Source: a virus. Taken from it: a DNA stretch of 64,000 nucleotides. Below the pieces are notes generated by a model. That model was not told the origin of the DNA, made no database searches, and worked only from the letters and a program-made list of their open reading frames with translations. Location of the stretch: IMG/VR virus record IMGVR_UViG_3300048930_001424, positions 1-64,000 of that record; one strand, given 5' to 3'. Of this stretch, positions 2,937 to 64,000 are shown piece after piece. How positions within the stretch are numbered: the stretch's first letter is position 1; each line of letters opens with the position of its first letter. Made by a program: the position numbers and the translations under genes.

Positions 2937-4498
2937 GCAAGCGACCGGAGCCAAAGCCAACCACGCGGGTGCGGTGCGCCATCTACACCCGCAAGAGCAC
3001 GCAGGACGGCCTCGAGCAGGAGTTCAACTCGCTCGACGCGCAGCGGGAAAGCGCCGAGGCGTACATCGCCAGCCAGAAGGCCGAGGGGTGGCAGTGCCTT
3101 CCCGATCGGTACGACGACGGCGGATTCACGGGCGGCAACATGGACCGCCCCGCCGTGGCCCGTTTGATGGCGGACATCGAAGCGGGCAAGGTGGACTGCG
3201 TGGTGGTCTACAAGGTGGACCGGCTCAGCCGCTCGCTGATCGACTTCGCCCGGATGATGGAGTTGTTCGAGCGCAAGAAGATTTCGTTCGTCTCTGTCAC
3301 GCAGCAGTTCAACACCACGCAGTCGATGGGGCGGCTCACGCTCAACATCCTGCTCTCGTTCGCGCAGTTCGAGCGAGAAATCATCTCTGAGCGCACGCGG
3401 GACAAGATCGCGGCGGCGCGACGGAAGGGCAAATGGTCGGGGGGCCGCTCTGTGCTCGGTTATGACGTAGACCCCGTCACGAAGAAGCTCGTGGTCAATG
3501 CCGCCGACGCAGAGTTGGTCCGCGACATCTTCCGAATGTACCTCCAGCGCCGTTCGCTCCTGGATGTGTGCCGCGAGTTGAACCGTCGCGGCCTGAAGAC
3601 CAAGGCGGTCCAGACGCGGAAGGGCGCGGCGTACGGCGGGCGCGTGTGGGACAAGCCCGCCGTGCTCAAGGTCCTCGCCAACGTCCTCTATCGCGGGAAG
3701 GTGCGGTACAAGGCCGAAACGTTCCCGGGCGAGCACGCCGCCATCGTTGAAGAAGGGCTCTGGACGAAGGTCCACGAGTTGCTGCGGTCGAACGGGCGCG
3801 CGGGTGGGATGCTCGTGCGGAACAAGTACGGCGCGCTGCTGAAGGGGCTCGTTCACTGCGGCCCGTGTGGCCTCTCAATGGGGCACACCACCGCCAACAA
3901 GGGCAAGGACCGCGTCTACCGCTACTACGTCTGCTACAAGGCCCAGAAGCAGGGCTGGGACGCGTGCCCGTGTCGGTCCCTTCCCGCCGAGCAGATCGAG
4001 GGCTTCGTGGTCGAGCAGATCAAGCGGATCGGCAAAGACCCGGCGCTGCTGTCGCTCACGCTTTCGAAGTGCCGCCAGCAACTGACGCACCAGCGGGCCG
4101 AGGCCGAACGTGAGTTGGGCGTGGTCGAGCGGGAACTCGCCCGCCTTCACGCCGACCTTGGCCGCACGGCGGGGGACGCCGCAACCGACGGTCACGCCGC
4201 CGCCCGTCTGGCCGATCTCCACCAGCGGGTCCAGGCGGCGGACGACCGAGCGGCCGCGCTCCGGCGCGATATCACGGACGCCGACGCCGCCCAAATCACG
4301 AAGGCCGAGGTCGATGCCGCGCTCGGGGAGTTCGACGGGGTCTGGTCGCGGCTGTCTCCGAAGGAGCAGGCCAAACTCATGCGGATGTTGGTCCAGCGCG
4401 TTGACTACGACGCCGCGAAGGGGTCGGTTTCGATCACGTTCCATCCGCTGGGCCTGCGGTCGATCGGCCAGCACGCGAATGAGGAGGTGTCGGTATGA
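2933..4498 (+). CDS. Large serine recombinase (integrase), cassette 1
   Basis: 521-aa site-specific recombinase that would cut and rejoin attachment-site DNA through a 5'-phosphoserine link. The resolvase-type catalytic domain spans about residues 13-160, with catalytic Ser22 in TRKST, and the conserved DRLSRSL and FAQFERE segments. A Recombinase domain follows, then a zinc ribbon with CGPCG and a later CYKAQ...DACPC region near residues 305-345, and a coiled-coil C-terminal segment rich in Ala, Glu and Arg near 380-470. Length fits the family. It is the middle gene of a coupled DUF2924-recombinase-HTH set. Its catalytic domain closely matches the recombinase at 58.5 kb while the C-terminal DNA-binding half differs, as expected for different target sites. 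Confidence 0.95.
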   Translation: MSKRPEPKPTTRVRCAIYTRKSTQDGLEQEFNSLDAQRESAEAYIASQKAEGWQCLPDRYDDGGFTGGNMDRPAVARLMADIEAGKVDCVVVYKVDRLSRSLIDFARMMELFERKKISFVSVTQQFNTTQSMGRLTLNILLSFAQFEREIISERTRDKIAAARRKGKWSGGRSVLGYDVDPVTKKLVVNAADAELVRDIFRMYLQRRSLLDVCRELNRRGLKTKAVQTRKGAAYGGRVWDKPAVLKVLANVLYRGKVRYKAETFPGEHAAIVEEGLWTKVHELLRSNGRAGGMLVRNKYGALLKGLVHCGPCGLSMGHTTANKGKDRVYRYYVCYKAQKQGWDACPCRSLPAEQIEGFVVEQIKRIGKDPALLSLTLSKCRQQLTHQRAEAERELGVVERELARLHADLGRTAGDAATDGHAAARLADLHQRVQAADDRAAALRRDITDADAAQITKAEVDAALGEFDGVWSRLSPKEQAKLMRMLVQRVDYDAAKGSVSITFHPLGLRSIGQHANEEVSV

Positions 4499-4902
4499 AC
4501 GACGGCGTGACGCTCGATTTCACGGTTCACTTCACCACGGGGCGCACCGGCCAGCGGGTTTTGAACGCCGGTGAGAAGCCGCCCCCGACCCCCGTGCCCG
4601 ACGGGAGGGTGCCGCGCGTCTCGCGGTTGATGGCTCTGGCCATCCGGTTCGACAACCTCGTCCGACTCGGGGAGGTTGCCGACTTTGCCGACATCGCAGA
4701 ACTGGGGCAGGTCACCCGCGCCCGCGTGAGCCAGATCGTGAACCTGCTCAATCTCGCCCCGGACATTCAGGAGGACATTCTCTTCCTGCCGCCGGTAGCG
4801 GGTGACCGGGACGCCGTGTCGGAGCGCGAGGTCCGGAGCATCGCCGGGGAGCCCGATTGGGGTCGGCAACGTGCCCTTTGGCAGCGGGCCGGGAAAGCCT
4901 GA
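4495..4902 (+). CDS. HTH protein of integration cassette 1
   Basis: 135-aa protein overlapping the recombinase stop by ATGA. Residues 60-100 (FADIAELGQVTRARVSQIVN) read as a helix-turn-helix of the KorB/ParB type, followed by LNLAPDIQEDILFLPP. The C-terminal 30 residues are charged and end in a WGRQRALWQRA motif. A homologous protein with the same order of motifs follows the second recombinase at 60.1 kb, so it is a standard cassette component. Likely roles are recombination directionality or repression of the cassette. The inverted repeats at 2069-2101 and 4933-4955 are candidate targets. No experimental function is known to me. Confidence 0.75.
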   Translation: MNDGVTLDFTVHFTTGRTGQRVLNAGEKPPPTPVPDGRVPRVSRLMALAIRFDNLVRLGEVADFADIAELGQVTRARVSQIVNLLNLAPDIQEDILFLPPVAGDRDAVSEREVRSIAGEPDWGRQRALWQRAGKA

Positions 4903-4969: not shown

Positions 4970-7900
4970 ATGAGCAAATGGATCGTTTTCATCACTGTCG
5001 TTCACGAGGAACTGACCTTCAGCGCCGACCTGCGCTCCGAGGGTGAACGCTCCGTGGCGACCTATCCGCTGCTCGCCGCACCGACGAACGCCATCGCCGA
5101 GCTCGTGGTCGCTCGGCTCAACCATCAACACGGATTGCCGGAAGAGGCCGGGGCGGACGACTGGCAGGAGTTCTCATTCAAGGCAGAGACGGAACTGACG
5201 CCCCAAGAGGTGGCGATGGCTCTGGACCTGAATGATCCCGCATACCCCAAGAACGGACGGCACCCTTCCTGGCTCTCCGGGATGGTGACCGCCGCGAAGA
5301 CGGCGATGGCCGACGTGGTTAAGCATCGCGCCTCTTCCCCGAAACACGATGATCCTGCGTACCTGTTCGTTGGGACGGGCGCGACGGCGACGCCATCGAC
5401 CGTGTTCCATCGCGCTGGCACCGCGGGCGCTGCCGCAACGCTTCGCGGGTTGTTCGCCAAGGAGTACTCGGCAAACGGCTCGCCTGCGTTCAACTTTCAA
5501 GCCGCGGGCGCTTTGCCACCGGACGAACGTCTGTTGCTGGACGAGGCGATCGATGAGTTGGCGATATACGACGACCCAGACCCGGGGGTCTACGACCCGC
5601 CAGCATCGAAGGCTTTGCTTGCACGGGCGGAGTATGCGAGACGGGCGGATCGGTGGGAGGCGATGCTGCTCAACAAGGCGTCAGCCGCCACGGGCGTTGC
5701 GTCGGTGACCGATCGCGTGAACGATCTTCTCCGCGCCGTCGAGCGTCATCGTCTGATGTTCCTGTACTGGGCCGCCGCCTGCCGTCGCAACCCGCTTGCG
5801 GTGAGGAGCCGTACCGGCATCAATGAGCGCGTTTCGCGCGACGACGTTCGCGGCTGGAAGGAGATGGTGGAGGCGATCGACGCGGAAGGCGCGTTCCTCT
5901 GGACGCATCGAAGCGTGCTCGACCGATACGCACAGGAAGCCATCGGCATGTTCGGCCCGGGCGAGGGATCGCGGCCCGGTGAGCCCGACGAAAGCGGCCG
6001 CAGTGTTCCTGTGGATGGCGGCACCTACCCCTACTGGTCGATCGATGAAGGCAGCACGAGCTACCTCGAAGAGTCGAGCGACGCGATTCTTGAAGCATGC
6101 CGCTCACTGGCTGAGGCCGGACAGCACGAGGTTGTCTTCGCGTTGGTGAAAGACGCAAGCGCCGCGGCGCGACCTGAACATCACGACCGTTGGTACGCCA
6201 ACGTCGTAGTGAAGTGGTCCTACCTCTCGGCGCTCGATTCACTCATCTCTCGCATCAAGGCGGTCCGTGTGGAGTTGGCGCTACCGCCCCGCTCCGAGAA
6301 GGCAGGGCCGTCCAAGCCGGAGGTCGTCAAACCCGATCCCCAAAGCGTGGCCGACGTGGTCGTGCTGTTCATGGTCACCCGCGATCTCGTTCGGATCGGC
6401 CGCGACTACCCGGACGCGATGCCTCAGGCCGACCACAAGGCCTGGGTTGACGAGGTCACCGCCCACGCCAACCTTATCTTGAAGCGGCCCGGCTTCGAGG
6501 GCATCAAGAAGCTGATGAAGGAGCCGACGCTCCTAGAAATGAATGTCCCTGAGCGATTCGGCATGCTGATGTCTGCCGCGATGATGGCGCACCCAGCGAT
6601 GGCAGCACCCGCGGGAACACCTGCCGAGATTCAAGCGGCGGTCGAGAAGGCCATGAGCGCCTGCCAGGAAACGGCGTCCCCTCACATCAAGGAACAGATG
6701 TCTCGCCTCGCCAACCTGATGGTGGTGTCGTGCCGCTGCCCGACCGGTACGGCTGTGAAGGACTTCGCTGACCCCGCACGGTTCTTGCAGATGCTCCACC
6801 GGTACTGGATGCTGGCAAGCGCGATGGTGCAAGCGCAGGCCACGGTTCACGTTGGCTTCAACCCGCATCCTCTGCTGCATCTGATCGAGAACGTGCGAGA
6901 TCGCCTGAGCACCTGCTTCTCGCGTGTTGTCCACCTCGATGGCGCTGGTGAGGCGCAGCAGGCGTGCGACCAGCTTGTTGGCATGCTCACGGAAGGCGAC
7001 ATTGACGATCTGTCAGCGGTGCCGGAGTGGACCAACGGCGAACTTCAGAGGGTGGAACGGTTCATCGCGAGGGCAAGGCTGAAGACTGGTCCTCGCGTGT
7101 TTGAGTTGACGGCCGCGGAAGAGTTCTTCATCAAACAGTCCGAGCACCTCATCGCAGAGCACGAGAAGCGCTGCCGTGCGGCATGGAAGCAGATGCTGGC
7201 CCGAGCAGACGCGCAGGCGGCGGCACGCAGGCCCGCCGATAGTTCGCCAACAACGCCGCCCGGTTCCGGGGCTGCGGCGCAACCGGCAGGGACGCCGGAG
7301 CAACGGATAGAGCGGATCGGTCCTCTCTTGTCTTCCCTTGTTGCGGCGGACAACGGGATCATGTCGCTGGGCGCGAGATTGCGTTCGCTGTCTACGCGCG
7401 GCACTGCCGCGAACACGCACGCCCTCACCGTGAAGGTGCAGGAGCAGCTTCACAAGTGGATTGACCCAATCGTTCAGCATCTGAAGGACGCCGAGACGGC
7501 CAGCAGTGGCGTCGGGCCGCATCTCGTTGGCCTCATCGCCGAGCCTGTCGCCTGGGAGGTTGACACGCGACTCGCGATCCGCACACTCAAAGATCAACTT
7601 GTCGGTCTCATTTACTCGAACGGCGGCGAGAACGAGGAGTCATTCGTCGTGGGCGCAGCAAGCAGCCTGTGTGACAGAGGACAACGCCTCCAAGCGGCAT
7701 TCGAGGCGCTCAATGCGCAGGCGGTGCCCCATCAACCCCATGCGTCCTCGAACGGGACGAAACCTGCTCCAAACGTCCAGCCGACTCCAATGGTGGTGCT
7801 GGGCCGCGCGGGCGATCCTTGCACCGTGAAAGGCAAGCCGAAGAAGGCGCTGACGGACGGTCAACACGCTGTTGTGGCCGCATTGATCGAGGCCGGCGAT

Positions 7901-8041
7901 GAAGGTCTCACCAAGGACGCCATCGAGGCAGTGCGTTCGAGCGCCCGCCGCATGCTTGACGATCTTCGCAAGGACAGTGATTGGGCGGGCGTGATCATCA
8001 TGCCCGGGCAGACGAACGGGCGCTATCGCGTTCGGACGTGA
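4970..8041 (+). CDS. Large protein of unknown function, 1023 aa
   Basis: I do not recognise this family. The N terminus (about 1-120) looks like a small alpha/beta domain. Residues 200-700 are mostly helical with many aromatic and charged positions. An Ala/Pro linker lies near 740-770. The last 70 residues (LTDGQHAVVAALIEAG onward) look like a winged helix, with a final GRYRV strand. No Walker, nuclease or membrane motifs are seen. It occupies the slot between an integration cassette and a sigma-like gene, the same slot that holds the unknown/QueC-like pair in the second element. It is therefore inferred to be variable cargo, possibly defensive. The ATG at 4970 follows a candidate operator. 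Confidence 0.6.
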   Translation: MSKWIVFITVVHEELTFSADLRSEGERSVATYPLLAAPTNAIAELVVARLNHQHGLPEEAGADDWQEFSFKAETELTPQEVAMALDLNDPAYPKNGRHPSWLSGMVTAAKTAMADVVKHRASSPKHDDPAYLFVGTGATATPSTVFHRAGTAGAAATLRGLFAKEYSANGSPAFNFQAAGALPPDERLLLDEAIDELAIYDDPDPGVYDPPASKALLARAEYARRADRWEAMLLNKASAATGVASVTDRVNDLLRAVERHRLMFLYWAAACRRNPLAVRSRTGINERVSRDDVRGWKEMVEAIDAEGAFLWTHRSVLDRYAQEAIGMFGPGEGSRPGEPDESGRSVPVDGGTYPYWSIDEGSTSYLEESSDAILEACRSLAEAGQHEVVFALVKDASAAARPEHHDRWYANVVVKWSYLSALDSLISRIKAVRVELALPPRSEKAGPSKPEVVKPDPQSVADVVVLFMVTRDLVRIGRDYPDAMPQADHKAWVDEVTAHANLILKRPGFEGIKKLMKEPTLLEMNVPERFGMLMSAAMMAHPAMAAPAGTPAEIQAAVEKAMSACQETASPHIKEQMSRLANLMVVSCRCPTGTAVKDFADPARFLQMLHRYWMLASAMVQAQATVHVGFNPHPLLHLIENVRDRLSTCFSRVVHLDGAGEAQQACDQLVGMLTEGDIDDLSAVPEWTNGELQRVERFIARARLKTGPRVFELTAAEEFFIKQSEHLIAEHEKRCRAAWKQMLARADAQAAARRPADSSPTTPPGSGAAAQPAGTPEQRIERIGPLLSSLVAADNGIMSLGARLRSLSTRGTAANTHALTVKVQEQLHKWIDPIVQHLKDAETASSGVGPHLVGLIAEPVAWEVDTRLAIRTLKDQLVGLIYSNGGENEESFVVGAASSLCDRGQRLQAAFEALNAQAVPHQPHASSNGTKPAPNVQPTPMVVLGRAGDPCTVKGKPKKALTDGQHAVVAALIEAGDEGLTKDAIEAVRSSARRMLDDLRKDSDWAGVIIMPGQTNGRYRVRT

Positions 8042-37217: not shown

Positions 37218-38288
37218 ATGGCAGACACACACTCCAAGTCCATTTGTGCAACTCTGGCAGACTACCGGCATGGCGAGATCGCTGCTCGAACGCCAGCCGA
37301 TGTCGATCGATGGATTAATCAGTTTGACAAGGGCGATCGAGACGTGGTCCTTCAGGAGACGGACCGGTTATTGCAAAAGCACTACGTCAGCGGAAAGGCC
37401 GCCAGGGCGTTCATCGACAGCATCTGGGCGACACAGAAGCTGATGGGAGCGTCGGCCGCATCAACAGTTGGCGGGTTCAAGTTCTTGGAGGTTGCCCGTA
37501 AGGGGGCAAGCCAAGGCGCCATGATCGAGTTGGCGAGATCTAGCCTCAAGCAGGCTCTCCGACTTGATCTCGATGCGTGCGGCAAGAGCCCTACGGCATA
37601 CGTCTATTTAGATGACTGCCTTTTTTCCGGCAACACCGTTGTGCACGATCTCAAGGATCACGTTGACGACCTGGCCAAGAACTCGACTGTCCACATGGTG
37701 TTCCTCGGCGGACACAACGGCGGGGTCAGGTACATCACGAAAGCTCTCGCACCCATCCTCGCCAAGCGTGGGATCAAGCACAACGTATGGACGATCCCCA
37801 CTCACACCTTTCAGAATCTACCCTGGGAGCCGGAGTCCTTCCAGCCGATGTGGCCCACCGAGGTGAAGGGTGACAAGCTGGTCGATGCCTACCTGGCTCG
37901 CGTGCAGAAAGCGTGTGAGGGCAAGTCCTTCACGCCCAGGCTGTTCCGGCCTCAGGCACGGACCAAAGAGGACGTGTTCTCTTCCCCTGCGGCGCGTCAA
38001 GCTGTTGAGACCGCGTTTCTGCGCAAGGGAGCATTCATTGTCGCGCAGTGCCAGAACCCGAAGGACAGCATGCGTCCGCTCGGCTACGAGTATCTGAGCT
38101 CACTCGGGTTTGGGGCGTTGATTGTGACCTACCGCAACATCGCGAACAACTGCCCCTTGGCGCTGTGGTGGGGCGATCCGAATGCCGCCAAGTCACATCC
38201 GCTCTCGAAGTGGTTCCCGTTGATCCCCCGTAGAAGCAATCAGGAGACTGCGAGCTCATCCTTCAGTGCTGACGATTACGACTTCTGA
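37218..38288 (+). CDS. PRTase-CE-like phosphoribosyltransferase-fold protein
   Basis: 356-aa protein matching the phosphoribosyltransferase conserved-effector pattern. It has an N-terminal helical part with RWINQF at residues 31-36, a PRPP-loop-like YVYLDDCLFSGNT at 128-140 (two acidic residues followed by SGNT), and a C-terminal HPLSKWFPLIPRR typical of the family. Known PRTases move phosphoribose between PRPP and bases. In conflict systems this variant is predicted to act on nucleotides or nucleic acids, with unproven chemistry. It lies between the helicase and the NADAR-methyltransferase. The Met at 37218 is chosen; a GTG five codons earlier is possible. Confidence 0.75.
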   Translation: MADTHSKSICATLADYRHGEIAARTPADVDRWINQFDKGDRDVVLQETDRLLQKHYVSGKAARAFIDSIWATQKLMGASAASTVGGFKFLEVARKGASQGAMIELARSSLKQALRLDLDACGKSPTAYVYLDDCLFSGNTVVHDLKDHVDDLAKNSTVHMVFLGGHNGGVRYITKALAPILAKRGIKHNVWTIPTHTFQNLPWEPESFQPMWPTEVKGDKLVDAYLARVQKACEGKSFTPRLFRPQARTKEDVFSSPAARQAVETAFLRKGAFIVAQCQNPKDSMRPLGYEYLSSLGFGALIVTYRNIANNCPLALWWGDPNAAKSHPLSKWFPLIPRRSNQETASSSFSADDYDF

Positions 38289-38301
38289 ATCGAACACCCA
38301 C

Positions 38302-41300
38302 ATGGCCAGAACACCAGAAACCCGCACCTACGACCGCGCGACCTCTGTGGTCTTCCTGAAGACCAAAGAGCGATTCGGTGGGCTGTCGAACATGGCGGGA
38401 GGGTTTCCATTGCAAGTTTGTGGCCGTCGCATCTTGACATCTGAGGCGTTGTACCAAGCGTGCCGGTTCCCGCACATGCCGGACATTCAGGAACTCATCG
38501 TCGATCAGTCGAGCCCGATGACTGCGAAGATGAAGAGCAAGCCCTACCGGAGTCAGTCCCGGGCGGATTGGGATGCTGTCCGCGTCACCATCATGCGCTG
38601 GTGTTTGCGCGTGAAGCTGGCTCAGAACTTCAAGTCGTTTAGCCGACTCCTGCGAGAGACGGGTGATCGGCCGATTGTCGAGGAGTCCCGCAAGGACGAC
38701 TTCTGGGGCGCGAAGCCCTCCACGCCAGACCGGCTTGAAGGCAAGAACGTCCTCGGTCGCTTGCTTATGGAGCTTCGCCAACTCGTTCTGGCGACGGCGG
38801 ACGACACGCTTCAGTCCGTCGACCCACCGGCCTTGCGTGAGTTTCTGATTTTTGGTCAACCGATCGGGCGGATTGGCGCGGGCGCGGCGGCACCCGCGCC
38901 CATGTCTGTCGCGGCGCTGTTCGCCGACGCTCCCGAGACATTGGAAGAAGCAAAGCCCATCACGGCCTCATCCGCTGGTCTCATCTCGCCCCCTGTGCCT
39001 GCTGTCGTTCCCGTGAGCATCACAATGACCGACCACCCACGCCTCATCGAACACGCCTTCCCATTGAAACAGGCGTCATTGGACTCCGTTCATGAGAAGA
39101 ACGTGCGCCATGGCCACATTTCTACGATCCATCTCTGGCCAGCACGGCGACCCCTCGCTGCTTGCCGGGCGGCACTGATCGCCACTCTACTGCCGGACCC
39201 CGGCACGCCCGAAGGCCGTCTGGCGCTGTGTGAGAAGATTGGCGGACGAGTGGTCAAGCGGATCGAGAAGAAGAAAATGCCGAACGGCTCCACGGTCGAG
39301 CGAGAAAAGCTCGACACTGAAGGGGGCATCCTCCACTGGGGGCGAGAAGTTGAGAACGTGGAGGCGATGGAGTGGTTCCGCCAGGAGATTCGCAAGGCCC
39401 ACGGCGGCCGCGCTCCAAAGGTGCTTGACCCTTTTTCGGGTGGTGGCGCAATCCCGCTCGAAGCCATGCGACTGGGATGCGAAGCGACGGCCGTGGACAT
39501 CAACCCGGTCGCATGGTTCACGCTCAAGTGCACTCTTGAATACCCGCAAAACCTCGCTGGTCAGACGTGTAGGCTCCCCGCATTCATTCTGCGCAATGAG
39601 GCCTTCATGTTCGAGTTCTTCACGAAGGCAAAGGGGATGAGCAAGGGCCAGGCCGCCAAGGCGATGGAACGGCTGGGACGGAAGCTCAAAGACGGAGAGC
39701 AGACTAACTTGGATTTCGGAGCCGCCGCGGGCGAACTCGACGCAGACATGGCATGGCACGTGCGGGCGTGGGGGCGATGGGTCCTAGAACGCGCCCGGCA
39801 CGACCTATTCAAGTACTACCCGACTTACGCTGACTTCGAACCGCTTAAAGACAGCGGTAAGGTCTACGAGCGCCAGCCGATGCGCCTCGTTCCTGCGAAT
39901 GAGAGCGGCGTTGCCGATTGTGATTCGCTCAACAGGGAGTTCTCAAAGGACTACCTGGCAGTCGCGGGCAATCCGCGGTGGTTGTCCAAACCGACAGTGG
40001 CGTATCTCTGGGCCCGCACAGTCACCTGCAAGAACTGTCGGGCAACGGTCCCATTGCTAAAGACACGCTGGCTTTGCAAGAGCGACAGAAAGCGGGTCGT
40101 TCTGACGATGACGCCACGTGCAGACGGGACTGGCGTTGTGTTCGGTATCGACAGCCAGGTTGAGAGCAAGGGTGGCAACGCAGCGCAGAAGAGGGAGCAC
40201 GACAAAAAGGTCGGCGCGGGCACCATGAGCCGCGCCGGTGCCAAATGCCCCTGCTGTCCGAGCATCATGACGATGGAGGACATTCGCTTGGAGGGACAGG
40301 CCGGGCGACTCGGAAGTGTGATGACCGCAGTCGTCGCGGATGAACCTCAGGGCAAGACTGGAAAGTCGTATCGCTTGCCGACTCGAGAGGAGCTCGAAGC
40401 GGCATCACTTGAGGAAGAGGCGATCAAGTCTGCATTCGCGGCCGTGCCGTTTGGCGTGCCTGAAGAGCCGACGCCCAGCGCTGATGCACTGGGCATGCGC
40501 ATCCCGCTCTACGGATTCAACAAATGGAGAACGCTTTTCACTCCTCGGCAGTTGCTTGCCCTTGGTGTTTTCGTCACCGACACGCGCGACGCTCGCAACG
40601 AAATGACCACTCACGGATACTCAGAAGAGTGGGTCGAAGCGGTTGGGGCTTACCTAGCGTGTGGCATCGATCGCCTATTGGATTTCGCCAACTGCGGCAC
40701 GCAATGGAAGCTCGACGCGAGCACCATCAACCACTCGTTCGTCCGCTTCGCTTTACCGATTACCTGGGACTACGCAGAGGGGAATCTCCTCGGCGAAAGC
40801 GCGGGAAGTTATCTGATTTGCCAAGATCGGATCGCCACGGCCTTGGACACGTTTTGCGAGTGGAAGTTCAGGTCTCCGGCACCGAAGATCATCCGCCAGT
40901 CATCTGTGCAGCCCACGCGAGGCGAATTTGATCTCATCCTGACAGATCCACCGTACTACGACGCAATCCCCTATTCGGATCTCATGGATTTTTTCTATGT
41001 GTGGCTTCGTCGAATGGTCGCCGGAGTAAGCAAGGACATCGATCTGGCATTTCAGGGCGACCTGTCGCCAAAATGGAGCGATGACGAGAACGATGGCGAG
41101 CTCGTTGACGACTCCAGCCGCCACAAGGGCGATGCGGCGAAGAGCAAACAAGTCTACGAGGACGGCATGGCCCGCGTCTTCACTCAATGCGCGGCCGTCC
41201 TCAAACCACAAGGCCGCCTGGTAATCGTTTTCGCCAACAAACAGCCCGACGCCTGGGAAACGCTCGTCTCAGCGATCATTCGTGCGGGGTTCACAGTGGA

Positions 41301-42348
41301 CGGAACCTGGCCCATCCAGACGGAGCAGGCGAGCCGAATGCGAGCGATTTCCTCTGCCGCCCTCGCGTCTTCCGTTTGGCTTGTGTGCAAGAAGCGTTCT
41401 GCGACCGCCACTGCGGGATGGGACAACCGCGTCGTCGAAGAGATGCGGACAAACATCGGCAGGCGACTTCAAGAGTACTGGGATGCGGGGATCAAGGGGC
41501 CGGACTTCATCTGGGCAGCGACTGGCCCGGCTCTTGAAGCATTCAGCAAACATCCGGTCGTCAAGAAGGCCAACGGCCCCGGCACCATGAGTGTCACCGA
41601 GTTCCTCACGCACGTCCGTCGCCTCGTGGTGGACTACGTCGTCGGCCAGGTGCTTTCGGGCACGGATGGTGCCAGCGGAGTAGTTGGGAGTGGTGCGGCC
41701 GCCGACAGGTTGGATGAAGCCACGGCCTACTACTTACTTCACCGCAACGATTTTGGTCTCGGTGAAGCTGCCGTGGGCACCGTCATCCTCTACGCCGTCT
41801 CGTGCGGACTCTCCGACCGCGACTTGGTTGATACTTGGGAATTGGCCGTCATGGTCGGTGATGACACTGTCACAGCCGATGATGCAGAAGACGAAGCTCA
41901 AGACGGTGGTGACGGACCTTCCGAGGATGAGTCAGGTAGCAAGGGGAGCACCATCCGCCTAAAGCGATGGAGTGAACGCACAGGTCGGAGCAGCGCCTCC
42001 ATCGGCTACGAAGCCCCCGGCGGACGACCCGTGCCGCTCATCGATCGTGTCCACCGCGTGATGCAGTTGTACAAGGCTGGCGACATCGGTAAGGTTGACG
42101 AGTATCTTGACGAGCACGGTCTGCGCCGTCACGAACTGTTTAAGCGTGTAATCCAGTCACTGATCGAGGTGTCGCGCCGGGAGCGAGGGACGGCCGCGGG
42201 CGGTCGTGATGATCACGGCGACGAGACGACGCTACTCGAAGCTCTCAGCAACCACATCGGGGCCAAGGGTGCGAAGCGGCAGACAGGCCAGCGCGAACTA
42301 AGCGAGACCACCGACAATTGGACGCCGACCTCGGCGTCGGCGGAGTAA
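38302..42348 (+). CDS. NADAR domain fused to DUF1156 DNA methyltransferase
   Basis: 1348-aa protein with two parts. Residues 1-165 are a NADAR (YbiA/DUF1768) domain: FGGLSNMAGGFPL, the key Glu48 in LTSEALYQA, RKDDFWGA near 130-137 and NVLGRLLMELR near 149-159. NADAR enzymes remove ADP-ribose from guanine. A Pro/Ala linker spans 190-240. Residues 245-1100 are a DUF1156-type adenine methyltransferase: DPFSGGG near 376-382, zinc-ribbon CKNCRA and CPCCP segments, and DPPYYD near 882-887. The C terminus is acidic and then helical. I know of no standard system with this fusion. An ATG at 38266 would overlap the upstream gene; 38302 starts at the domain. Confidence 0.88.
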   Translation: MARTPETRTYDRATSVVFLKTKERFGGLSNMAGGFPLQVCGRRILTSEALYQACRFPHMPDIQELIVDQSSPMTAKMKSKPYRSQSRADWDAVRVTIMRWCLRVKLAQNFKSFSRLLRETGDRPIVEESRKDDFWGAKPSTPDRLEGKNVLGRLLMELRQLVLATADDTLQSVDPPALREFLIFGQPIGRIGAGAAAPAPMSVAALFADAPETLEEAKPITASSAGLISPPVPAVVPVSITMTDHPRLIEHAFPLKQASLDSVHEKNVRHGHISTIHLWPARRPLAACRAALIATLLPDPGTPEGRLALCEKIGGRVVKRIEKKKMPNGSTVEREKLDTEGGILHWGREVENVEAMEWFRQEIRKAHGGRAPKVLDPFSGGGAIPLEAMRLGCEATAVDINPVAWFTLKCTLEYPQNLAGQTCRLPAFILRNEAFMFEFFTKAKGMSKGQAAKAMERLGRKLKDGEQTNLDFGAAAGELDADMAWHVRAWGRWVLERARHDLFKYYPTYADFEPLKDSGKVYERQPMRLVPANESGVADCDSLNREFSKDYLAVAGNPRWLSKPTVAYLWARTVTCKNCRATVPLLKTRWLCKSDRKRVVLTMTPRADGTGVVFGIDSQVESKGGNAAQKREHDKKVGAGTMSRAGAKCPCCPSIMTMEDIRLEGQAGRLGSVMTAVVADEPQGKTGKSYRLPTREELEAASLEEEAIKSAFAAVPFGVPEEPTPSADALGMRIPLYGFNKWRTLFTPRQLLALGVFVTDTRDARNEMTTHGYSEEWVEAVGAYLACGIDRLLDFANCGTQWKLDASTINHSFVRFALPITWDYAEGNLLGESAGSYLICQDRIATALDTFCEWKFRSPAPKIIRQSSVQPTRGEFDLILTDPPYYDAIPYSDLMDFFYVWLRRMVAGVSKDIDLAFQGDLSPKWSDDENDGELVDDSSRHKGDAAKSKQVYEDGMARVFTQCAAVLKPQGRLVIVFANKQPDAWETLVSAIIRAGFTVDGTWPIQTEQASRMRAISSAALASSVWLVCKKRSATATAGWDNRVVEEMRTNIGRRLQEYWDAGIKGPDFIWAATGPALEAFSKHPVVKKANGPGTMSVTEFLTHVRRLVVDYVVGQVLSGTDGASGVVGSGAAADRLDEATAYYLLHRNDFGLGEAAVGTVILYAVSCGLSDRDLVDTWELAVMVGDDTVTADDAEDEAQDGGDGPSEDESGSKGSTIRLKRWSERTGRSSASIGYEAPGGRPVPLIDRVHRVMQLYKAGDIGKVDEYLDEHGLRRHELFKRVIQSLIEVSRRERGTAAGGRDDHGDETTLLEALSNHIGAKGAKRQTGQRELSETTDNWTPTSASAE

Positions 42349-57738: not shown

Positions 57739-58008
57739 ATGCCACGACACAAATCGCAGAACAACCCGACGCTGGCGGGCACGCCGTGCGTTCCGGCCCG
57801 CGCCATCGAACTCCTCGCGGCGGGGACGGCCCGGCTGATCGACGCGAGCGCCCACGATTCGAGCGTCATCATTGAACACGCCGGTTCCCTTCGGGCGGGA
57901 CTTGAACTCGCGGATCATGCCGCCCTCAGTGTGCCTACGGGTGAACGCCACCGTCCCGAACCGGAGAACCCGGGACGATGCTGCCCGAAGGAGCCTGAAG
58001 GACGATGA
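57739..58008 (+). CDS. Small cassette ORF upstream of second DUF2924
   Basis: 89-aa predicted protein (starting MPRHKSQNNPTLAGTPCVPA) whose stop overlaps the DUF2924 ATG (ATGA), an arrangement that supports genuine translation. A short helix ARAIELLAAGTARLIDAS corresponds in place and character to that of the small ORF in cassette 1. An in-frame ATG at 57712 is also open. No domain is recognised. Confidence 0.4.
   Translation: MPRHKSQNNPTLAGTPCVPARAIELLAAGTARLIDASAHDSSVIIEHAGSLRAGLELADHAALSVPTGERHRPEPENPGRCCPKEPEGR
57952..57977. promoter_or_regulatory. Inverted repeat upstream of second DUF2924
   Basis: CGTCCCG (57952-57958) and CGGGACG (57971-57977) with a 12-nt spacer, ending 27 bp before the DUF2924 ATG. 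The spacer equals that of the inverted repeat before cassette 1 (2069-2100), although the arms differ in sequence. It may be the operator of this cassette, bound by its own HTH protein. Confidence 0.4.
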
Positions 58009-58517
58009 GGACCACCGCAACCATCCAGCAACAGATCGACGAGCTGCGAGACATGCCCGTGTCGCGGCTCCGCGAGCGCTACGCGGAAGTATTCGGCGAG
58101 CCGACAGCCTCCGGAAATCGCCAGTGGCTTTTCCGGCGGGTGGCCTGGCGAATCCAGTCCTTGGCCGAAGGGGACCTCTCCGAGCGGGCGCGGCGTCGGG
58201 CCGCGGAGTTGGCCCGGGACGTCGACGTCCGGGTCCGGCCGCCGGGGGAACGGGAATCCGACAAAGTCCGCTCCGGCGCGCGGCTCGTGACAATCACTGG
58301 ACGGCTCGCGTCGGCGGGAACCGACCGCCTGCCCGCGCCCGGCACCGTCCTGCGGCGCACGTTCAAGGGCGCTGAGCACGAGGTGACGGTTCTCCCCTAC
58401 GGCTTCGAGTACGAGGGGAAGGCGTACCGATCCCTGTCGGCGGTGGCGACGGCGATCACAGGGTCGCACTGGAACGGGTTCCTGTTCTTCGGGCTGACCA
58501 AGAAGGGAACAACATGA
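58005..58517 (+). CDS. DUF2924 domain protein, second copy
   Basis: 170-aa DUF2924 protein, similar to the one at 2427. It shares RLRERYAEVFGEPT, WRIQSLAEGDLSERARRRA, the LPYGFEYEGKAYRSLSAVA block and ITGSHWNGFLFFGL. Upstream neighbour ATGA overlap and a recombinase overlap on the right repeat the cassette-1 layout. Divergent sequence shows that the two cassettes are not a recent duplication. Confidence 0.9.
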   Translation: MRTTATIQQQIDELRDMPVSRLRERYAEVFGEPTASGNRQWLFRRVAWRIQSLAEGDLSERARRRAAELARDVDVRVRPPGERESDKVRSGARLVTITGRLASAGTDRLPAPGTVLRRTFKGAEHEVTVLPYGFEYEGKAYRSLSAVATAITGSHWNGFLFFGLTKKGTT

Positions 58518-60106
58518 GCTCCGCCGTCACCAAGCGTCCCGCCGCTTCGCGCCGCGCCGCCGCGGACGCCGCGCTGGGAAGCTCCTCGCCGTCTAAGTCG
58601 GGCCCGCGGACCATCCGCTGCGCCATCTACACGCGCAAGAGCACCGAGGAGGGCCTCAACCAGGAGTTCAACAGCCTGGACGCCCAGCGCGAGAGCGCCA
58701 TCGCGTACATCGCCAGCCAGAAGAACGAGGGGTGGCTGTGCATCTCCGAGAAGTACGACGACGGTGGATTCACCGGCGGGAACATCGAGCGTCCTGCGCT
58801 CAAGCGGCTGATGGCCGACATCGAAGCGGGGAAGGTCGACTGCGTGGTGGTCTACAAGGTAGACCGGCTCAGCCGATCGCTGATGGATTTCGCGCGGCTG
58901 ATGGCGCTCTTCGACCGCAAGGGCGTGTCGTTCGTCTCCGTCACGCAGCAGTTCAACACGACCCACTCGATGGGCCGCCTGACGCTGAACATCCTGCTGT
59001 CGTTCGCACAGTTCGAGCGGGAGATCATCTCCGAGCGAACGCGGGACAAGATCGCCTCCGCGCGGCGCAAGGGCAAGTACCAGCACGGCAAGCCAATCTT
59101 GGGGTACGACTTCGTGCCCGCGCCGGCTCCATTCACGGGGCGGCGCCTGGTCGTCAACCAGGTCGAGGCGGGTCGCGTCCGGCGCATCTTCGAGTTGTAC
59201 CTCGAGGTCGAGAGCATCCTGCGAGTTGCCGACGAGTGCAACACCCGCGGTTGGACCACGAAGTCGTGGACGACCACCGCTGGGCGCACGGTCGGCAACC
59301 GGGAGTTCGACAAAACCATCATCTCGCGGCTCCTTCGCAACCCGCTCTACCTCGGGAAGGTGCCGCACAACGGTGCGGTGTACGACGGCGAGCACGAAGC
59401 GATCATCGACGAGGATCTGTTCCGCCGCGTCCAAGCCCAACTCAAACTCGCCGGCGAGCGCGGCGGGGCCGGCGTGAAGAACTCGACAGGGTCGCTCCTG
59501 GGCGGGTTGGTCCGGTGCAAGGGGTGCGAGTGCGCGATGTCCCCGAGCAGTGCATCGAAGAAGAAGTCCGACGGGTCACGCACCCGATACCGCTACTACG
59601 TCTGCTGCAACGCGGTGAAGCGCGGGCGGCAGCACTGCGCCGCCCCGTCCTTGCCCGGGCCGGCGCTCGAAGCGTTCGTCCTTGACCAGGTGAAGGCCAT
59701 TCTGGCCGACTCCCCGCAGATGACGGCTGTCGTTGGCCGTGCGATCGATCTCCTCCGCGAGGCCGCCAGCGCTCGGATCGCGGAGCAGACGCGGCTCCGT
59801 GCCGTGCTCGAACGGCTCTCCGGCGAGGAGCCAACGGCCGCCACGCGCCGCGAGATCGAGCGTGTGCGGCGAACGCTCGCGGCGGTTTCCGCGCAGGTGG
59901 CGGCGGACGCCGACCGCCTCATCGACGAGGACGAGGTGGCCGGAGCGGTGGAGGCTTTCGACGGGGTCTGGAACGCGATGACGCAGGCCGAACGCGCCGA
60001 GTTCCTGCACGTCGTGATCGCGTCAGTTGAGTACGACGGCCAGACGCAGGACGTCTCGATCACCTTCAACCCCGAACTCAATCCAGCGGAGACACCCAGC
60101 GAATGA
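58514..60106 (+). CDS. Large serine recombinase, cassette 2
   Basis: 530-aa serine recombinase. The N-terminal 30 residues are an Ala/Arg-rich extension before the resolvase domain with catalytic Ser43 in TRKST. DRLSRSL and FAQFERE are conserved. A zinc-ribbon region has CKGCECAM and YYVCCNAV near 335-370, followed by an Ala/Arg/Glu coiled coil near 410-470. The catalytic half is nearly the same as in the 2.9-kb recombinase while the C-terminal half differs. It is expected to integrate this element at a different attachment site. Confidence 0.95.
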   Translation: MSSAVTKRPAASRRAAADAALGSSSPSKSGPRTIRCAIYTRKSTEEGLNQEFNSLDAQRESAIAYIASQKNEGWLCISEKYDDGGFTGGNIERPALKRLMADIEAGKVDCVVVYKVDRLSRSLMDFARLMALFDRKGVSFVSVTQQFNTTHSMGRLTLNILLSFAQFEREIISERTRDKIASARRKGKYQHGKPILGYDFVPAPAPFTGRRLVVNQVEAGRVRRIFELYLEVESILRVADECNTRGWTTKSWTTTAGRTVGNREFDKTIISRLLRNPLYLGKVPHNGAVYDGEHEAIIDEDLFRRVQAQLKLAGERGGAGVKNSTGSLLGGLVRCKGCECAMSPSSASKKKSDGSRTRYRYYVCCNAVKRGRQHCAAPSLPGPALEAFVLDQVKAILADSPQMTAVVGRAIDLLREAASARIAEQTRLRAVLERLSGEEPTAATRREIERVRRTLAAVSAQVAADADRLIDEDEVAGAVEAFDGVWNAMTQAERAEFLHVVIASVEYDGQTQDVSITFNPELNPAETPSE

Positions 60107-60573
60107 CCTCACCCTCCAAACAGGCAGGCCGCGCTTCGGGTTTCGTCCCGATCACGACGACGGCGAGATTCGTCGTGCCGGGACGGGAACGAGCGGTGGC
60201 GCCTTACGGGGTTGCGCAGAAGCCCGTATCACCCGGTCGGGTGCCGCGGGTCGCGCGGTTGATGGCGCTGGCGATCCGGTTCGATGCCCTGGTTCGGGAG
60301 GGAGCGGTGAGCACGCAGGCCGAGCTAGCTGCGGTCGGCCATGTCACGCGGGCGCGTGTGACCCAGATCATGAACCTCCTCCACCTCGCGCCAGACCTGC
60401 AGGAGGCCATCCTTTTTATGCCTCCTGTCGCGCGCGGCCGAGACCCGGTGACCGAGCATGAACTTCGGCCCATCGCGGCTGAGGTCGATTGGGGCCGTCA
60501 GCGTCACTTGTGGCGACGTGCTTATCAGACGTTTTGCGGCGAAACACCTCATCTTGCGGCCAATCCCGGGTGA
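60103..60573 (+). CDS. HTH protein of integration cassette 2
   Basis: 156-aa homologue of the 4495 protein. It has RVPRVARLMALAIRFDALVREG and an HTH in STQAELAAVGHVTRARVTQI, followed by LLHLAPDLQEAILFMPP. The end has DWGRQRHLWRRAY. Its start overlaps the recombinase stop. Candidate repressor or directionality factor for this cassette. Confidence 0.75.
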   Translation: MTSPSKQAGRASGFVPITTTARFVVPGRERAVAPYGVAQKPVSPGRVPRVARLMALAIRFDALVREGAVSTQAELAAVGHVTRARVTQIMNLLHLAPDLQEAILFMPPVARGRDPVTEHELRPIAAEVDWGRQRHLWRRAYQTFCGETPHLAANPG

Positions 60574-60664: not shown

Positions 60665-61450
60665 ATGGGACACACCCGATTTGGCAACTTACCGAGATCG
60701 CGGAAGTGGAAAGAGGTGATCGGCCTCATCGCCGCCGGCGCCGGCGCTGATCAGATCGCCAACGCGATTATCCGCGCGGCCGAGTCCGGCCTCATGGCCG
60801 CGGCGCATCATACAGGTCTCGTCGAGGCATTCTGGTCGCTCACGCAGCTCACACAGGCGGCGCGAGAGAAGGACTTTGCCGCCGGCCTTCGAGCCCGTGG
60901 CTTTGATGTCCCTGACAACCCCAGCTTGCCGGCAATCATGAGCGCCGTGTCGGCCGCGATCGACCGCAGCATGCCCAACAACAAGGGCCGTACCGATCTG
61001 GGCGAGATGGCACACGCCGCAGCGATCGAGACCACGAACCGGATCGTAACCGAGCGGGTCTCGTCGTCCCTCTTTGGGGTCTCCGCTCAAGACGTTCAGC
61101 GCGCCTTCCACGACCTCGGCACGGTCAAGAACTTCGGCGACCTCGGCAAGCGGTTCTTCGGCCAGTTGACCAACAAGGTTCTCCAGTCATACGCGAGCCG
61201 CGAGTGCGCGAATCACGTCGGTCAGGGGCAGCGGTTTGCCAACCTCGCCGCGAAGGCCGCCTTCGATGAGGCGATGAACGTGCACTGCAGGCAGGCCGCC
61301 GTGATCGTCCAGAAGTTTGCCGGGGAGTGGCAGTCGAAACAAAACTGGACGAACAAGGACATCGGCGGGATCACGCGCAAGCACGCCGAGGGGTTTGCTC
61401 ACCAGGCGATGAAAAAGATGGTGGCCGAACTAAAGGAGGGGAACAAGTGA
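60665..61450 (+). CDS. Unknown protein coupled to QueC-like gene
   Basis: 261-aa, largely helical protein from the ATG at 60665 (MGHTRFGNLPRSRKWKEVIG). Its GTGA overlap with the next gene makes the pair obligately linked. It could be the partner of the PP-loop protein in a Qat-like module. It does not match QatB as I remember it, so the name is withheld. Notable features are an Ala-rich N-terminal half and basic Lys-rich C terminus. No enzymatic motif is seen. Confidence 0.6.
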   Translation: MGHTRFGNLPRSRKWKEVIGLIAAGAGADQIANAIIRAAESGLMAAAHHTGLVEAFWSLTQLTQAAREKDFAAGLRARGFDVPDNPSLPAIMSAVSAAIDRSMPNNKGRTDLGEMAHAAAIETTNRIVTERVSSSLFGVSAQDVQRAFHDLGTVKNFGDLGKRFFGQLTNKVLQSYASRECANHVGQGQRFANLAAKAAFDEAMNVHCRQAAVIVQKFAGEWQSKQNWTNKDIGGITRKHAEGFAHQAMKKMVAELKEGNK

Positions 61451-63474
61451 ACCCTCCCGAGATGCTGTTCGCGTGCAATGAGGCCGCTTCGTCCCATCCT
61501 GGTACGGTTGCCGGCGTGTCCAAGCTCCGCACCGCGGGGCCGGGAAAAAACGTCACCGTCGAGATCAACGACATCGGCCGGCAGCTCAACCAAAACATCC
61601 CCGCGCCGCTCATCGACCTGGTCGAGATCGCCGCGCTCGTGTTTGTCGCCGATCAGATGCAGCGTCGCGGCGAGGACGATGTCGAATCGATGGGTGCGTC
61701 CTGGCGTCGCCGCATGCGGTTCGAGATTCCCGTCCGCGTTCCGAAGCTCTGGAGCTCCGCCGAGGTCGGCGATGCGCTTCAGGCACTTCTGAGTTTCCTC
61801 TCGGAGGATGAGTACGAGTTCACGTTCACCCAGTACAAGCATCCTCCCACGCTCGACGCGTACTTGAACTTCGGCTCGCTCATCTCGGCCGACCCTGCCG
61901 AGTCGGTGGTCCTGTTCTCGGGCGGCTTGGATTCTCTGGGCGGCACCCTCGAAGAAGTGGTTCAGGACAAACGATCCACGCTGCTGGTTACGCATGCGTC
62001 GGCCAGCACGAAGCGAGAGCGCCACAAGACCCTGCGGGGCATGATCGCTAGCGCCGCGCCGGGCCCCAAGCCCCAATTCATCAGGATTCGCGCCGACAAG
62101 AAGCACCGATCTGAGCGGGAGTACACGCAGCGGGCTCGGTCCTTTCTCTACGCGTCGTTCGCCGTGGCAGTGGCTCGCATGGCCGGGCTGGACGCCATCC
62201 GGTTCTACGAGAATGGCGTCGTGAGTCTGAATCTGCCCCTCTCACCCCAGGTCGTCGGCTCGCGCGCGACCCGCACGACCCATCCCAGGGTGCTCGCTTG
62301 CATGCAGACGTTCTTTTCGCTCATCACGGGGACATCGTTCAGCGTGGAGAACGGGTTCCTCTGGAAGACCAAGAGCGAAGTGGTCAGCGACATCATTAAG
62401 CTCGGCCACGGCGCGATGATTGACTACTCCACGAGCTGCACGCACACCCGCAAGTACCGCACCGATCAGCCCCACTGTGGCGAGTGTTCCCAATGCATCG
62501 ATCGACGGTTCGCGGTCTTGTCCAGTGGCGGTGAACAGTTCGAGCCCGCGGACCGGTACCGCCACAAGCTGCTGACCGAAGCGCGCGGCGAGGGCGAGTC
62601 ACGGATCATGTTGGCGTCGTACCTGGAGACGGCTCAGCAGGTCGCGGAGATGGACATCACCGCATTCTACAACCGGTATGGAGAAGCAGCCCGCGCGTTC
62701 CCCCACATCAAACTACCTGTGGATGAAGCGGCGAAGCGGATCTTCGAGCTCTACCAGCGCCACGGGAAGCAGGTCGCGTCGGCTATCGACGCAGCCGGCA
62801 AGGCGTACATGTCCGAGATCCGGAAACGCACCCTGCCCGAGACGTGCACGTTGCGCCTCGTGCATGATCCGAACCCCAACACGACGATTGCGAGCGCCCC
62901 GTCGGCGTCGGGCATAGCCGAACCGCCGCCGCCGTCGCACCAGCTCGTTCAGGAGGGCCAGGGCTGGCTGCTGCGGTTCGACGGAATCGACAAGCGATTC
63001 GAGCTCAGCGTGGGCATGGTCTATCTGCAGGCCATGCTGTATCGGCCAAACAAGCGGTTCACGGTGGCCGAGCTCTACTCCATCGCCCGTCCGCACATGA
63101 AGGACATCCCGAGCGCCCGGGCAGAGGCGCAGTTGGATGCGAAGGGAGCGCGTTTAGTCTGGGTGAGGATCACCGAGGTCAACGACGCGATCGCCGCCGC
63201 CATCAAGGCCGGCGATACCACCGCCCAGAAGGTCGCAGAGAACGAGAAGGAGAAACTGCTCGCGTACCTGCGTGAGCACAACTTCGCCGGACGCATGAAG
63301 GTGGAAAGCGCCGACCACAAGCGTCTCAGGGACCGTGTCCGCAATCGGGTGAACGACGCGATCGGAATCATCAAGAAGTATCACGCCACCGCCGGCGACC
63401 ACATCGACGGAGCCATATCTCGTGGCTCTGTCATGGCTTACGCGCCCGTCGACCTGCCGCCGTGGGAGTTCTGA
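61447..63474 (+). CDS. QueC/QatC-like PP-loop protein
   Basis: 675-aa protein. The PP-loop ATP pyrophosphatase motif SGGLDS at residues 158-163 and a zinc-binding CTHTRKYRTDQPHCGECSQC near 331-350 identify a QueC-like domain (7-cyano-7-deazaguanine synthase fold). The first 150 and last 200 residues are extra: an N-terminal variable domain and a C-terminal part with LRFDGIDKRFELSVGMVYLQ that resembles a winged helix. QueC itself is about 220 aa, so this is a defence-type derivative as in QatC. It may modify a protein or nucleic acid with a nitrile or related group. The GTG overlaps the preceding stop. Confidence 0.82.
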   Translation: MNPPEMLFACNEAASSHPGTVAGVSKLRTAGPGKNVTVEINDIGRQLNQNIPAPLIDLVEIAALVFVADQMQRRGEDDVESMGASWRRRMRFEIPVRVPKLWSSAEVGDALQALLSFLSEDEYEFTFTQYKHPPTLDAYLNFGSLISADPAESVVLFSGGLDSLGGTLEEVVQDKRSTLLVTHASASTKRERHKTLRGMIASAAPGPKPQFIRIRADKKHRSEREYTQRARSFLYASFAVAVARMAGLDAIRFYENGVVSLNLPLSPQVVGSRATRTTHPRVLACMQTFFSLITGTSFSVENGFLWKTKSEVVSDIIKLGHGAMIDYSTSCTHTRKYRTDQPHCGECSQCIDRRFAVLSSGGEQFEPADRYRHKLLTEARGEGESRIMLASYLETAQQVAEMDITAFYNRYGEAARAFPHIKLPVDEAAKRIFELYQRHGKQVASAIDAAGKAYMSEIRKRTLPETCTLRLVHDPNPNTTIASAPSASGIAEPPPPSHQLVQEGQGWLLRFDGIDKRFELSVGMVYLQAMLYRPNKRFTVAELYSIARPHMKDIPSARAEAQLDAKGARLVWVRITEVNDAIAAAIKAGDTTAQKVAENEKEKLLAYLREHNFAGRMKVESADHKRLRDRVRNRVNDAIGIIKKYHATAGDHIDGAISRGSVMAYAPVDLPPWEF

Positions 63475-63630: not shown

Positions 63631-64000
63631 ATGCCTTCGATCGCAGCAGACCGGGCGCTGACGTGCGCCGATCGTAGCGGCTTTGCCGCTTTCCCTTCCC
63701 TCACCGTCCGGCAGATGGAGTTCCGCACCGAGCGTCTCGGACGGCTGTACTCCCTCTTCCCCGACCAGGTCGCCGATCTCCGGCAGGAGTTGGCGGCCGA
63801 GATCGTGCGCGCGCTGCGGCGGTTCGATCCGACGATCGCCTCGCGGACGACGTTCATGAAGGGCGTCATGAACCTCTGGTACCGGCAGAAGTGCAAGCAG
63901 CTGCGCCGCGAAGCGGCGGAACGCGACCGGCTCGTTCCTCTGCCGCCGCTGGGGACCGAGGGCAGGGACTTCGCAGACCGCCGCCTCGGTGGCGTGGCCG
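63631..64000 (+). CDS. Sigma-like protein of second element (partial)
   Basis: 123 codons open to the window end, starting ATG at 63631 with AGGAGG at 63621-63626. The segment LYSLFPDQVADLRQELAAEI through RFDPTIASRTTFMKGVMNLW, then YRQKCKQLRREAAERD, has the same order and character as the sigma-like protein at 8394 (RLLAVWDSFDSARGPREAFI, LLRERYAQKRR). It would open a second replication module beyond this window. The region-4 HTH is not reached. Confidence 0.65.
   Translation, partial: MPSIAADRALTCADRSGFAAFPSLTVRQMEFRTERLGRLYSLFPDQVADLRQELAAEIVRALRRFDPTIASRTTFMKGVMNLWYRQKCKQLRREAAERDRLVPLPPLGTEGRDFADRRLGGVA

What the first reader, a model, noticed from the sequence alone, without database searches (positions are those of the whole stretch)
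60665..63474. Two-gene QueC/QatC-like cargo without the rest of Qat
The PP-loop protein has an N-terminal and a long C-terminal extension beyond QueC. Its partner is unknown, and no ATPase (QatA) or TatD nuclease (QatD) lies beside it. Coupling by GTGA suggests a self-contained pair.
Basis: partly seen in the sequence, partly recalled or inferred. Interest (0 to 1): 0.68.

Follow-up and report, generated by a model that had tools for sequence, protein, structure and literature searches.

The report
Prophage-borne stripped-down Qat pair
Next to the integrase gene of a prophage sits a two-gene unit that is a cut-down relative of the Qat anti-phage system: a QatC-type enzyme with a swappable extra tail domain, and a QatB-shaped partner whose unusually conserved start (Met-Gly-His) is probably the place the enzyme chemically marks.

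Summary
A 261-aa gene (60665-61450) and a 675-aa PP-loop gene (61447-63474) overlap by GTGA. The large protein is QatC in fold over residues 4-472 (Z 33 to QatC). It keeps the QatC-specific active site in all 49 relatives aligned. A further ~190-aa domain follows. The "unknown" partner has no detectable sequence match, but its predicted fold matches QatB: Z 12.6 over 207 of 215 residues, next chain Z 4.0. Its N-terminal tail is about 55 aa shorter than QatB's. That tail (MGHxRLGxLP) is the least ordered yet most conserved stretch of the protein, like QatB's essential MGTS and CdnD's MGGS. The pair is a family of its own. All 10 full-length partners found by a partner-only genome search have the enzyme next door. 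No QatA-type ATPase was found in the window's record or in 50 others. 14 canonical QatC loci all have QatB and QatD and never the MGH partner. dN/dS is about 0.1, so it is not a remnant. In 32 of 41 representative loci a serine recombinase lies just upstream. The enzyme's C-terminal module is swapped between relatives (winged helix, DpnII-MboI nuclease, window type). Verdict: a new variant of a known kind, a QatBC-only system. Modification of Gly2 and phage defence are inferred, not shown.

The parts
60665..61450 (+). Partner gene, 261 aa, QatB-like fold; N-terminus MGHTRFGNLPRSRKW
   Evidence: co-occurrence
60665..60694 (+). Conserved N-terminal tail (residues 1-10, MGHxRLGxLP): predicted disordered, most conserved 10-residue stretch of the family; G2 invariant in 49/49 aligned
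61447..63474 (+). QatC-like gene, 675 aa, GTG start overlapping the partner's stop (GTGA)
61432..61439 (+). Shine-Dalgarno-like AGGAGG in front of the GTG start
   Evidence: sequence
61456..62862 (+). Part of the protein (residues 4-472) that superposes on QatC (N-terminal extension, QueC core, QatB-binding C-terminal helices)
   Evidence: Z 33.2, rmsd 3.1, 404 of 427 residues
61918..61935 (+). PP-loop SGGLDS (residues 158-163), invariant except the x position in 49 relatives
62269..62277 (+). T275-R276-T277, equivalent to the QatC-specific T278/T280 pair that replaces QueC's Tyr/Asp
   Evidence: PMC13279940
62437..62496 (+). Zinc cysteines C331, C344, C347, C350 (49/49)
62914..63474 (+). Extra C-terminal domain (residues 490-675, class A), absent from QatC and swapped for winged-helix or nuclease domains in relatives
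58005..60106 (+). Prophage integration module just upstream: DUF2924 (58005-58517) and large serine recombinase (58514-60106); a small recombinase-associated ORF follows (60103-60573)
   Evidence: linkage
63631..63999 (+). Start of the sigma-factor-like gene of the prophage early region (continues past the window; then Sak4-like, SSB, helicase)

Best explanation
The pair is a minimal, self-standing QatBC-type anti-phage system carried as prophage cargo. The large protein is a QatC-type PP-loop ATP-pyrophosphatase. The 261-aa protein is its QatB counterpart. The two are translated coupled and should form a complex. After removal of Met1, Gly2 of the short disordered tail (GHxRLGxLP) enters the QatC-type active site. 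There the enzyme uses ATP to activate a small carboxylate and conjugates it to the Gly2 amine; this may be a 7-deazaguanine, or another base given the Thr pair in the pocket. The modified or armed complex then blocks phage growth. The fused C-terminal module (winged helix, DpnII-MboI nuclease, or the window-type domain) supplies the DNA-binding or effector role that canonical systems get from QatA and QatD. Shown here by computation: the QatC fold and intact QatC-specific active site, the QatB fold of the partner, the invariant MG(H) start, strict pairing, absence of QatA/QatD, purifying selection, and linkage to a recombinase. Inferred: complex formation, Gly2 modification, phage defence, and the role of the C-terminal module.
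For: Enzyme: QatC profiles E 3.8e-57 and 6e-51. Model superposes on QatC 9y02_B with Z 33.2 over 404/427 residues, against Z 13.3 for QueC and 12.6 for Cap9. SGGxDS, H183, R229/R231, T277 and the four zinc Cys are invariant in 49 relatives; T275 is Thr in 44 and Ser in 5. Partner: AF2 pLDDT 86.7; QatB 9y01_A Z 12.6, 207/215 aligned, next unrelated chain Z 4.0. MGH start in 79 of 80 partner genes; residues 1-10 are the most conserved 10-residue window of 252 although pLDDT there is lowest. Pairing: coupled or near-coupled starts at all 80 loci; 10/10 full-length partners found by partner-only genome search have the enzyme downstream. The one orphan partner, without the enzyme, starts MDH (G2 lost). 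No KAP in 50 records/genomes nor in the window's record; TatD only elsewhere in 4 bacterial genomes. Literature: QatB+QatC alone protect against lambda-vir, and QatB G2D or loss of QatC Thr/PP-loop residues abolishes defence (PMC13279940). The pair sits beside a rich defence island.
Against: No phage assay or chemistry was possible. The partner-QatB relation is structural only: hhalign probability 4% against five QatB sequences, and Foldseek alone did not rank QatB in its top 50. The partner's tail is ~10 residues, whereas the tested QatB has 65, so whether it can reach the active site in cis is unproven. The reaction of QatC itself is unresolved even in canonical Qat. DNA-binding or effector activity of the window's own C-terminal domain is a guess; it has no Pfam or PDB relative. 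Prophage cargo could also serve phage needs other than defence.
Confidence: 0.62

Rival explanations
1. It is a decayed remnant of a full qatABCD operon.
For: QatA and QatD are absent, and in canonical loci the QatC gene is flanked by QatB and QatD.
Against: dN/dS 0.06-0.17 for both genes. Intact catalytic residues in 49 of 49. The pair forms its own clade (SH-aLRT 98, quick tree), and no member examined has QatA/QatD beside it.
Confidence: 0.03
2. The enzyme makes a free nucleobase (a preQ0-like product) for phage or host nucleic acid modification, and the partner is an accessory or regulator.
For: QueC fold core. Phages do use 7-deazaguanines, and the PHROG match is labelled QueC-like queuosine biosynthesis.
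Against: The substrate-recognising Tyr/Asp of QueC is replaced by the QatC Thr pair. Canonical QatC cannot make queuosine precursor (PMC13329287). A QatB-fold partner with an invariant MGH start is always coupled.
Confidence: 0.07
3. It is an immunity or superinfection-exclusion and lysogeny-control module of the prophage: the winged-helix-type C-terminal domain makes QatC a DNA-bound regulator, and the modification controls prophage genes rather than attacking invaders.
For: Consistent position between integrase and early region (32/41 loci). Trans_reg_C-type domains over cut-off in some relatives.
Against: Another relative carries a DpnII-MboI nuclease at the same place, which suits attack better than regulation. 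The close canonical relative is a tested defence system. Some pairs are not next to a recombinase (9 of 41).
Confidence: 0.15
4. It is a toxin-antitoxin-like pair: the QatB-like protein is toxic when modified or unmodified, and the prophage uses it for maintenance.
For: Tight translational coupling and mobile-element setting. QatB has no known enzymatic site, so abortive toxicity is possible.
Against: No toxin fold. In the orphan case the partner persists without the enzyme and has lost Gly2, which fits loss of function better than addiction. Nothing of the kind is reported for QatBC in the papers read.
Confidence: 0.08

Closest known systems
qatABCD (Qat) anti-phage system, QatB and QatC (structures 9y01/9y02; PMC13279940)
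   Same: QatC fold over residues 4-472, QatC-specific Thr pair, PP-loop and zinc site; QatB fold of the partner; disordered N-terminus starting MG; coupled B-C gene order.
   Different: No QatA or QatD. Partner not recognisable by sequence, tail ~10 instead of 30-90 aa, motif MGH instead of MGTS. An additional swappable ~120-190-aa C-terminal domain on QatC. QatC score 194 bits, under the NCBIfam cut-off of 280.
Type IV CBASS Cap9-CdnD deazaguanylation
   Same: QueC-family enzyme paired with a protein substrate that presents an N-terminal glycine (MGGS there, MGH here).
   Different: No CD-NTase fold in the partner (it is QatB-like); Cap9 lacks both extensions and keeps QueC's Tyr/Asp substrate site.
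Canonical QueC (PF06508)
   Same: PP-loop Rossmann core and zinc site.
   Different: Substrate-recognition residues replaced, long extensions, no link to queuosine genes.
A third QatC-like cassette seen here (L143, L144, L176)
   Same: QatC-like enzyme with an overlapping small helical upstream gene; sister clade in the tree.
   Different: Partner is shorter and starts M[ST]DGPHRSLP in two of three; PP-loop SDGMDS in two; an HTH plus ImmA/IrrE (Peptidase_M78) gene follows (shown by Pfam for L143).

Membership tests
qatABCD | QatC with QueC core and N- and C-terminal extensions, SGGxDS, zinc Cys, Thr pair | tested here: met
   Z 33.2, 404/427; 49/49 for SGGxDS, zinc Cys and T277; T275 44 Thr, 5 Ser
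qatABCD | QatC above the NCBIfam NF041925 equivalog cut-off | tested here: not met
   194 bits against 280; full-length family members 180-220 bits against 304-547 for canonical
qatABCD | QatB recognisable by sequence or profile | tested here: not met
   no PADLOC/NCBIfam match; hhalign probability 4%
qatABCD | QatB fold | tested here: met
   Z 12.6, 207/215 residues, next chain 4.0
qatABCD | QatA (KAP-family NTPase) in the operon | tested here: not met
qatABCD | QatD (TatD nuclease) in the operon | tested here: not met
N-terminal-glycine substrate of a QueC-family conjugase (QatB/CdnD-like) | Invariant Met-Gly start on a disordered tail, coupled to a QueC-family gene | tested here: met
   (start choice used the MG motif, but the first start codon gives it in most loci)
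N-terminal-glycine substrate of a QueC-family conjugase (QatB/CdnD-like) | Demonstrated nucleobase or other conjugate on Gly2 | not testable with these tools
   needs intact-mass spectrometry
Type IV CBASS | CD-NTase, Cap9 and Cap10 in one operon | tested here: not met
   Partner has the QatB fold. PADLOC, NCBIfam and Pfam scans of the two genes show no CD-NTase. The genes on either side are a recombinase-associated ORF and a sigma-like gene.
Canonical QueC | Tyr/Asp substrate motif (YPDC) and queuosine neighbourhood | tested here: not met
   T-R-T at that place in 44 of 49, S-R-T in 5; prophage/defence neighbourhood

The most novel reading that the evidence does not exclude
A separate branch of QueC-based immunity in which substrate and enzyme stand alone, and a swappable C-terminal module fused to the conjugase (winged helix, DpnII-MboI nuclease, or the uncharacterised window-type domain) takes over the DNA-sensing or effector work of QatA and QatD. 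The short MGH tail would be a new modification site, possibly with a chemistry different from deazaguanylation.
Probability: 0.35. Interest if true: 0.78.

Novelty: new variant of a known kind. Interest (0 to 1): 0.63.

Why it matters
In 2026 it was shown that QatB+QatC alone can protect, but the reaction could not be reconstituted and the roles of QatA/QatD are open. Here is a natural QatBC-only lineage, with a ~10-residue tail instead of 65. That should make the N-terminal modification easier to see by mass spectrometry and structure. The swapped C-terminal modules, including a restriction-nuclease type, hint at what the armed complex does. The pair also falls below the curated QatC cut-off and its partner matches no PADLOC model, so current defence-finding models are likely to miss it.

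Tried and rejected
Remnant of qatABCD: rejected. Partner as a known family: no match in Pfam, PADLOC, NCBIfam, PHROGs or PDB by sequence; Foldseek alone also gave nothing, and the QatB match came only from the second-look aligner. Named phages and plasmids: tblastn of the partner finds none at 1e-5, but the enzyme search led to a Leptospira noguchii plasmid pair. Class A and class B C-terminal domains as one family: hhalign probability 0.2%, not supported. Class A domain in PDB: only weak coiled-coil-like hits. Class B in PDB: weak response-regulator hits above 0.04. The careful maximum-likelihood tree did not finish; only the quick tree is used.

Full report
What is there. Two + strand genes overlap by GTGA: 60665-61450 (261 aa, MGHTRFGNLPRSRKW...) and 61447-63474 (675 aa). 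The second has a good Shine-Dalgarno in front of its GTG.

The large protein. QatC models match residues about 48-378 (PADLOC 6e-51; NCBIfam NF041925 3.8e-57, 194 bits, below its 280-bit cut-off); the solved QatC chains match at about 1e-28. The AF2 model (49 relatives, pLDDT 84.5) superposes on QatC over residues 4-472 with Z 33.2 and 404 of 427 residues, far better than on QueC (13.3) or Cap9 (12.6). So the N-terminal extension and the first part of the C-terminal one are the QatC extensions, the latter being the part that binds QatB in the crystal structure (PMC13279940). By numbering through the PDB alignment, window T275/T277 equal QatC T278/T280, the pair that replaces the Tyr/Asp of QueC and Cap9 and is essential for defence. 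T277, SGGxDS, H183, R229/R231 and C331/C344/C347/C350 are invariant in 49 relatives, and T275 is Thr in 44 and Ser in 5.

The partner. By sequence it matches nothing, and hhalign against five QatB sequences gives 4%. Its AF2 model (pLDDT 86.7) matches QatB 9y01_A with Z 12.6, rmsd 3.6, 207 of 215 residues at 9% identity. The next unrelated chain is at Z 4.0. For a helical protein a Z of 12-13 alone would be only suggestive. The large gap to the rest, the near-complete coverage and the QatC neighbour make common descent or at least the same role very likely. Foldseek by itself did not list QatB in its top 50. Model residue 8 aligns with QatB residue 64, so the tail is some 55 residues shorter than that of P. 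aeruginosa QatB.

The N-terminus. Of 80 partner genes, 79 read MGH and one MGN. The start was picked with the MG motif, but in most loci it is simply the first start codon, and in L008/L009 no other start is available upstream in the open frame. Residues 1-10 are the least ordered part of the model (mean pLDDT 45) and yet the most conserved 10-residue window of the family, rank 1 of 252. QatB has MGTS and CBASS CdnD has MGGS at this place; the Gly is modified in CdnD and essential in QatB (PMC13279940). The only partner found intact without an enzyme next to it (L010) begins MDH, and no QatC-like frame follows it. This is one case only, but in the direction the model predicts.

The family. A viral-contig scan with the enzyme gave 128 loci, 80 kept. 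The 80 partner genes I could place (viral contigs plus the first genome loci) lie directly upstream, nearly all overlapping the enzyme's start, mostly by 4-11 nt. A partner-only search of 294 and 385 genomes found 8 and 5 positive genomes. All 10 full-length partners there have the enzyme next door; the remaining hits are truncated or frame-broken. QatC-profile searches in the same groups split cleanly. 14 of 14 loci over the QatC cut-off have QatB upstream and QatD downstream and no MGH partner. The 10 MGH-type loci have neither. KAP (QatA) is absent from 50 records and genomes and from the window's record. TatD occurs only in four bacterial genomes, away from the pair. Viral records are fragments, so absence there is weaker evidence than in the four genomes. 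In a quick tree the pair enzymes are one clade (98) within QatC, sister to a third cassette type (the careful search did not finish, and support is SH-aLRT only). dN/dS of 0.06-0.17 excludes a remnant.

The extra C-terminal domain. Residues about 490-675 have no counterpart in QatC. Among 49 relatives this part falls into classes with no detectable similarity to each other. The window type (class A) is in 27. An OmpR/PhoB-like winged-helix type (class B) is in 14. The rest are others. Some members, such as L074, pass the Trans_reg_C cut-off; that class B as a whole is winged-helix rests on its pattern and on weak matches, and is inference. A Leptospira noguchii plasmid pair (partner MGHERLGILPKTRSW) carries a DpnII-MboI restriction-endonuclease domain there, E 1.2e-9, over the cut-off. 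The window-type domain is also found at the C-terminus of many other proteins in 21 of 149 Planctomycetota genomes and has no Pfam family. A swapped module that includes DNA-binding and nuclease types fits a targeting or effector role; this is inference.

The setting. The window belongs to a virus record of 90 kb. The pair sits between a DUF2924/serine-recombinase module and an early region with sigma-like, Sak4-like, SSB and helicase genes. A serine recombinase lies within 3 kb upstream in 32 of 41 representative loci, against 1 of 40 for the 3 kb downstream. The virus collection is biased to such places, but 5 of 10 independent genome loci show it as well within their short flanks. Just upstream, 33.5-57.6 kb is a dense defence island (HmaA/HmaC-like, GmrSD, type I RM, Septu-like PDC-M01AB).

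Mechanism. Most likely the enzyme conjugates an ATP-activated small acid to Gly2 of the partner, as Cap9 does with CDG on CdnD and as is proposed for QatC on QatB, and the complex then acts against phage. In canonical Qat, QatB and QatC alone suffice against lambda-vir (PMC13279940), so a QatBC-only lineage is biologically plausible. Shown: folds, residues, pairing, conservation, absence of QatA/D, linkage. Inferred: modification, defence, and the role of the module.

What is known. The two papers on the family (PMC13279940, PMC13329287) describe qatABCD. The second notes that only about a third of its QatC cluster has qatA or qatD nearby, but in the parts I read neither describes an MGH partner, a short tail or fused C-terminal modules. 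I found no other paper on it in the held library; subscription papers and most preprints are not covered.

Noticed in passing
L143 779-3899; also L144 and L176: A third QatC-like cassette: ~200-aa helical upstream gene (M[ST]DGPHRSLPMRRxWK in two), 460-491-aa QatC-like enzyme (PP-loop SDGMDS in two), then an HTH + ImmA/IrrE (Peptidase_M78) gene; sister clade of the pair.
   Followed up: partly
L092 4072-6716 (Leptospira noguchii plasmid): MGH pair whose QatC-like protein ends in a DpnII-MboI restriction-endonuclease domain; annotated as two hypothetical proteins.
   Followed up: partly
window 62914-63474; loci L115, L117-L131: The window-type C-terminal domain is a portable module at the end of many unrelated Planctomycetota proteins (21 of 149 genomes) and has no Pfam entry.
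   Followed up: partly
window 33540-57646: Dense defence island: HmaA/HmaC-like, PRTase-CE, a NADAR + DUF1156 methylase fusion (38266-42345), GmrSD, type I RM (R, M, S), Septu-like ATPase + HNH (PDC-M01AB).
   Followed up: partly
window 4970-8041: A second recombinase module (2427-4902) is followed by a 1023-aa ORF of no known family and then a sigma-like gene: the same cargo slot as the pair, with a different, unidentified cargo.
   Followed up: no
L010 8001-8762: Orphan partner gene without the enzyme, start MDH instead of MGH, followed by pentapeptide-repeat-like DNA.
   Followed up: partly
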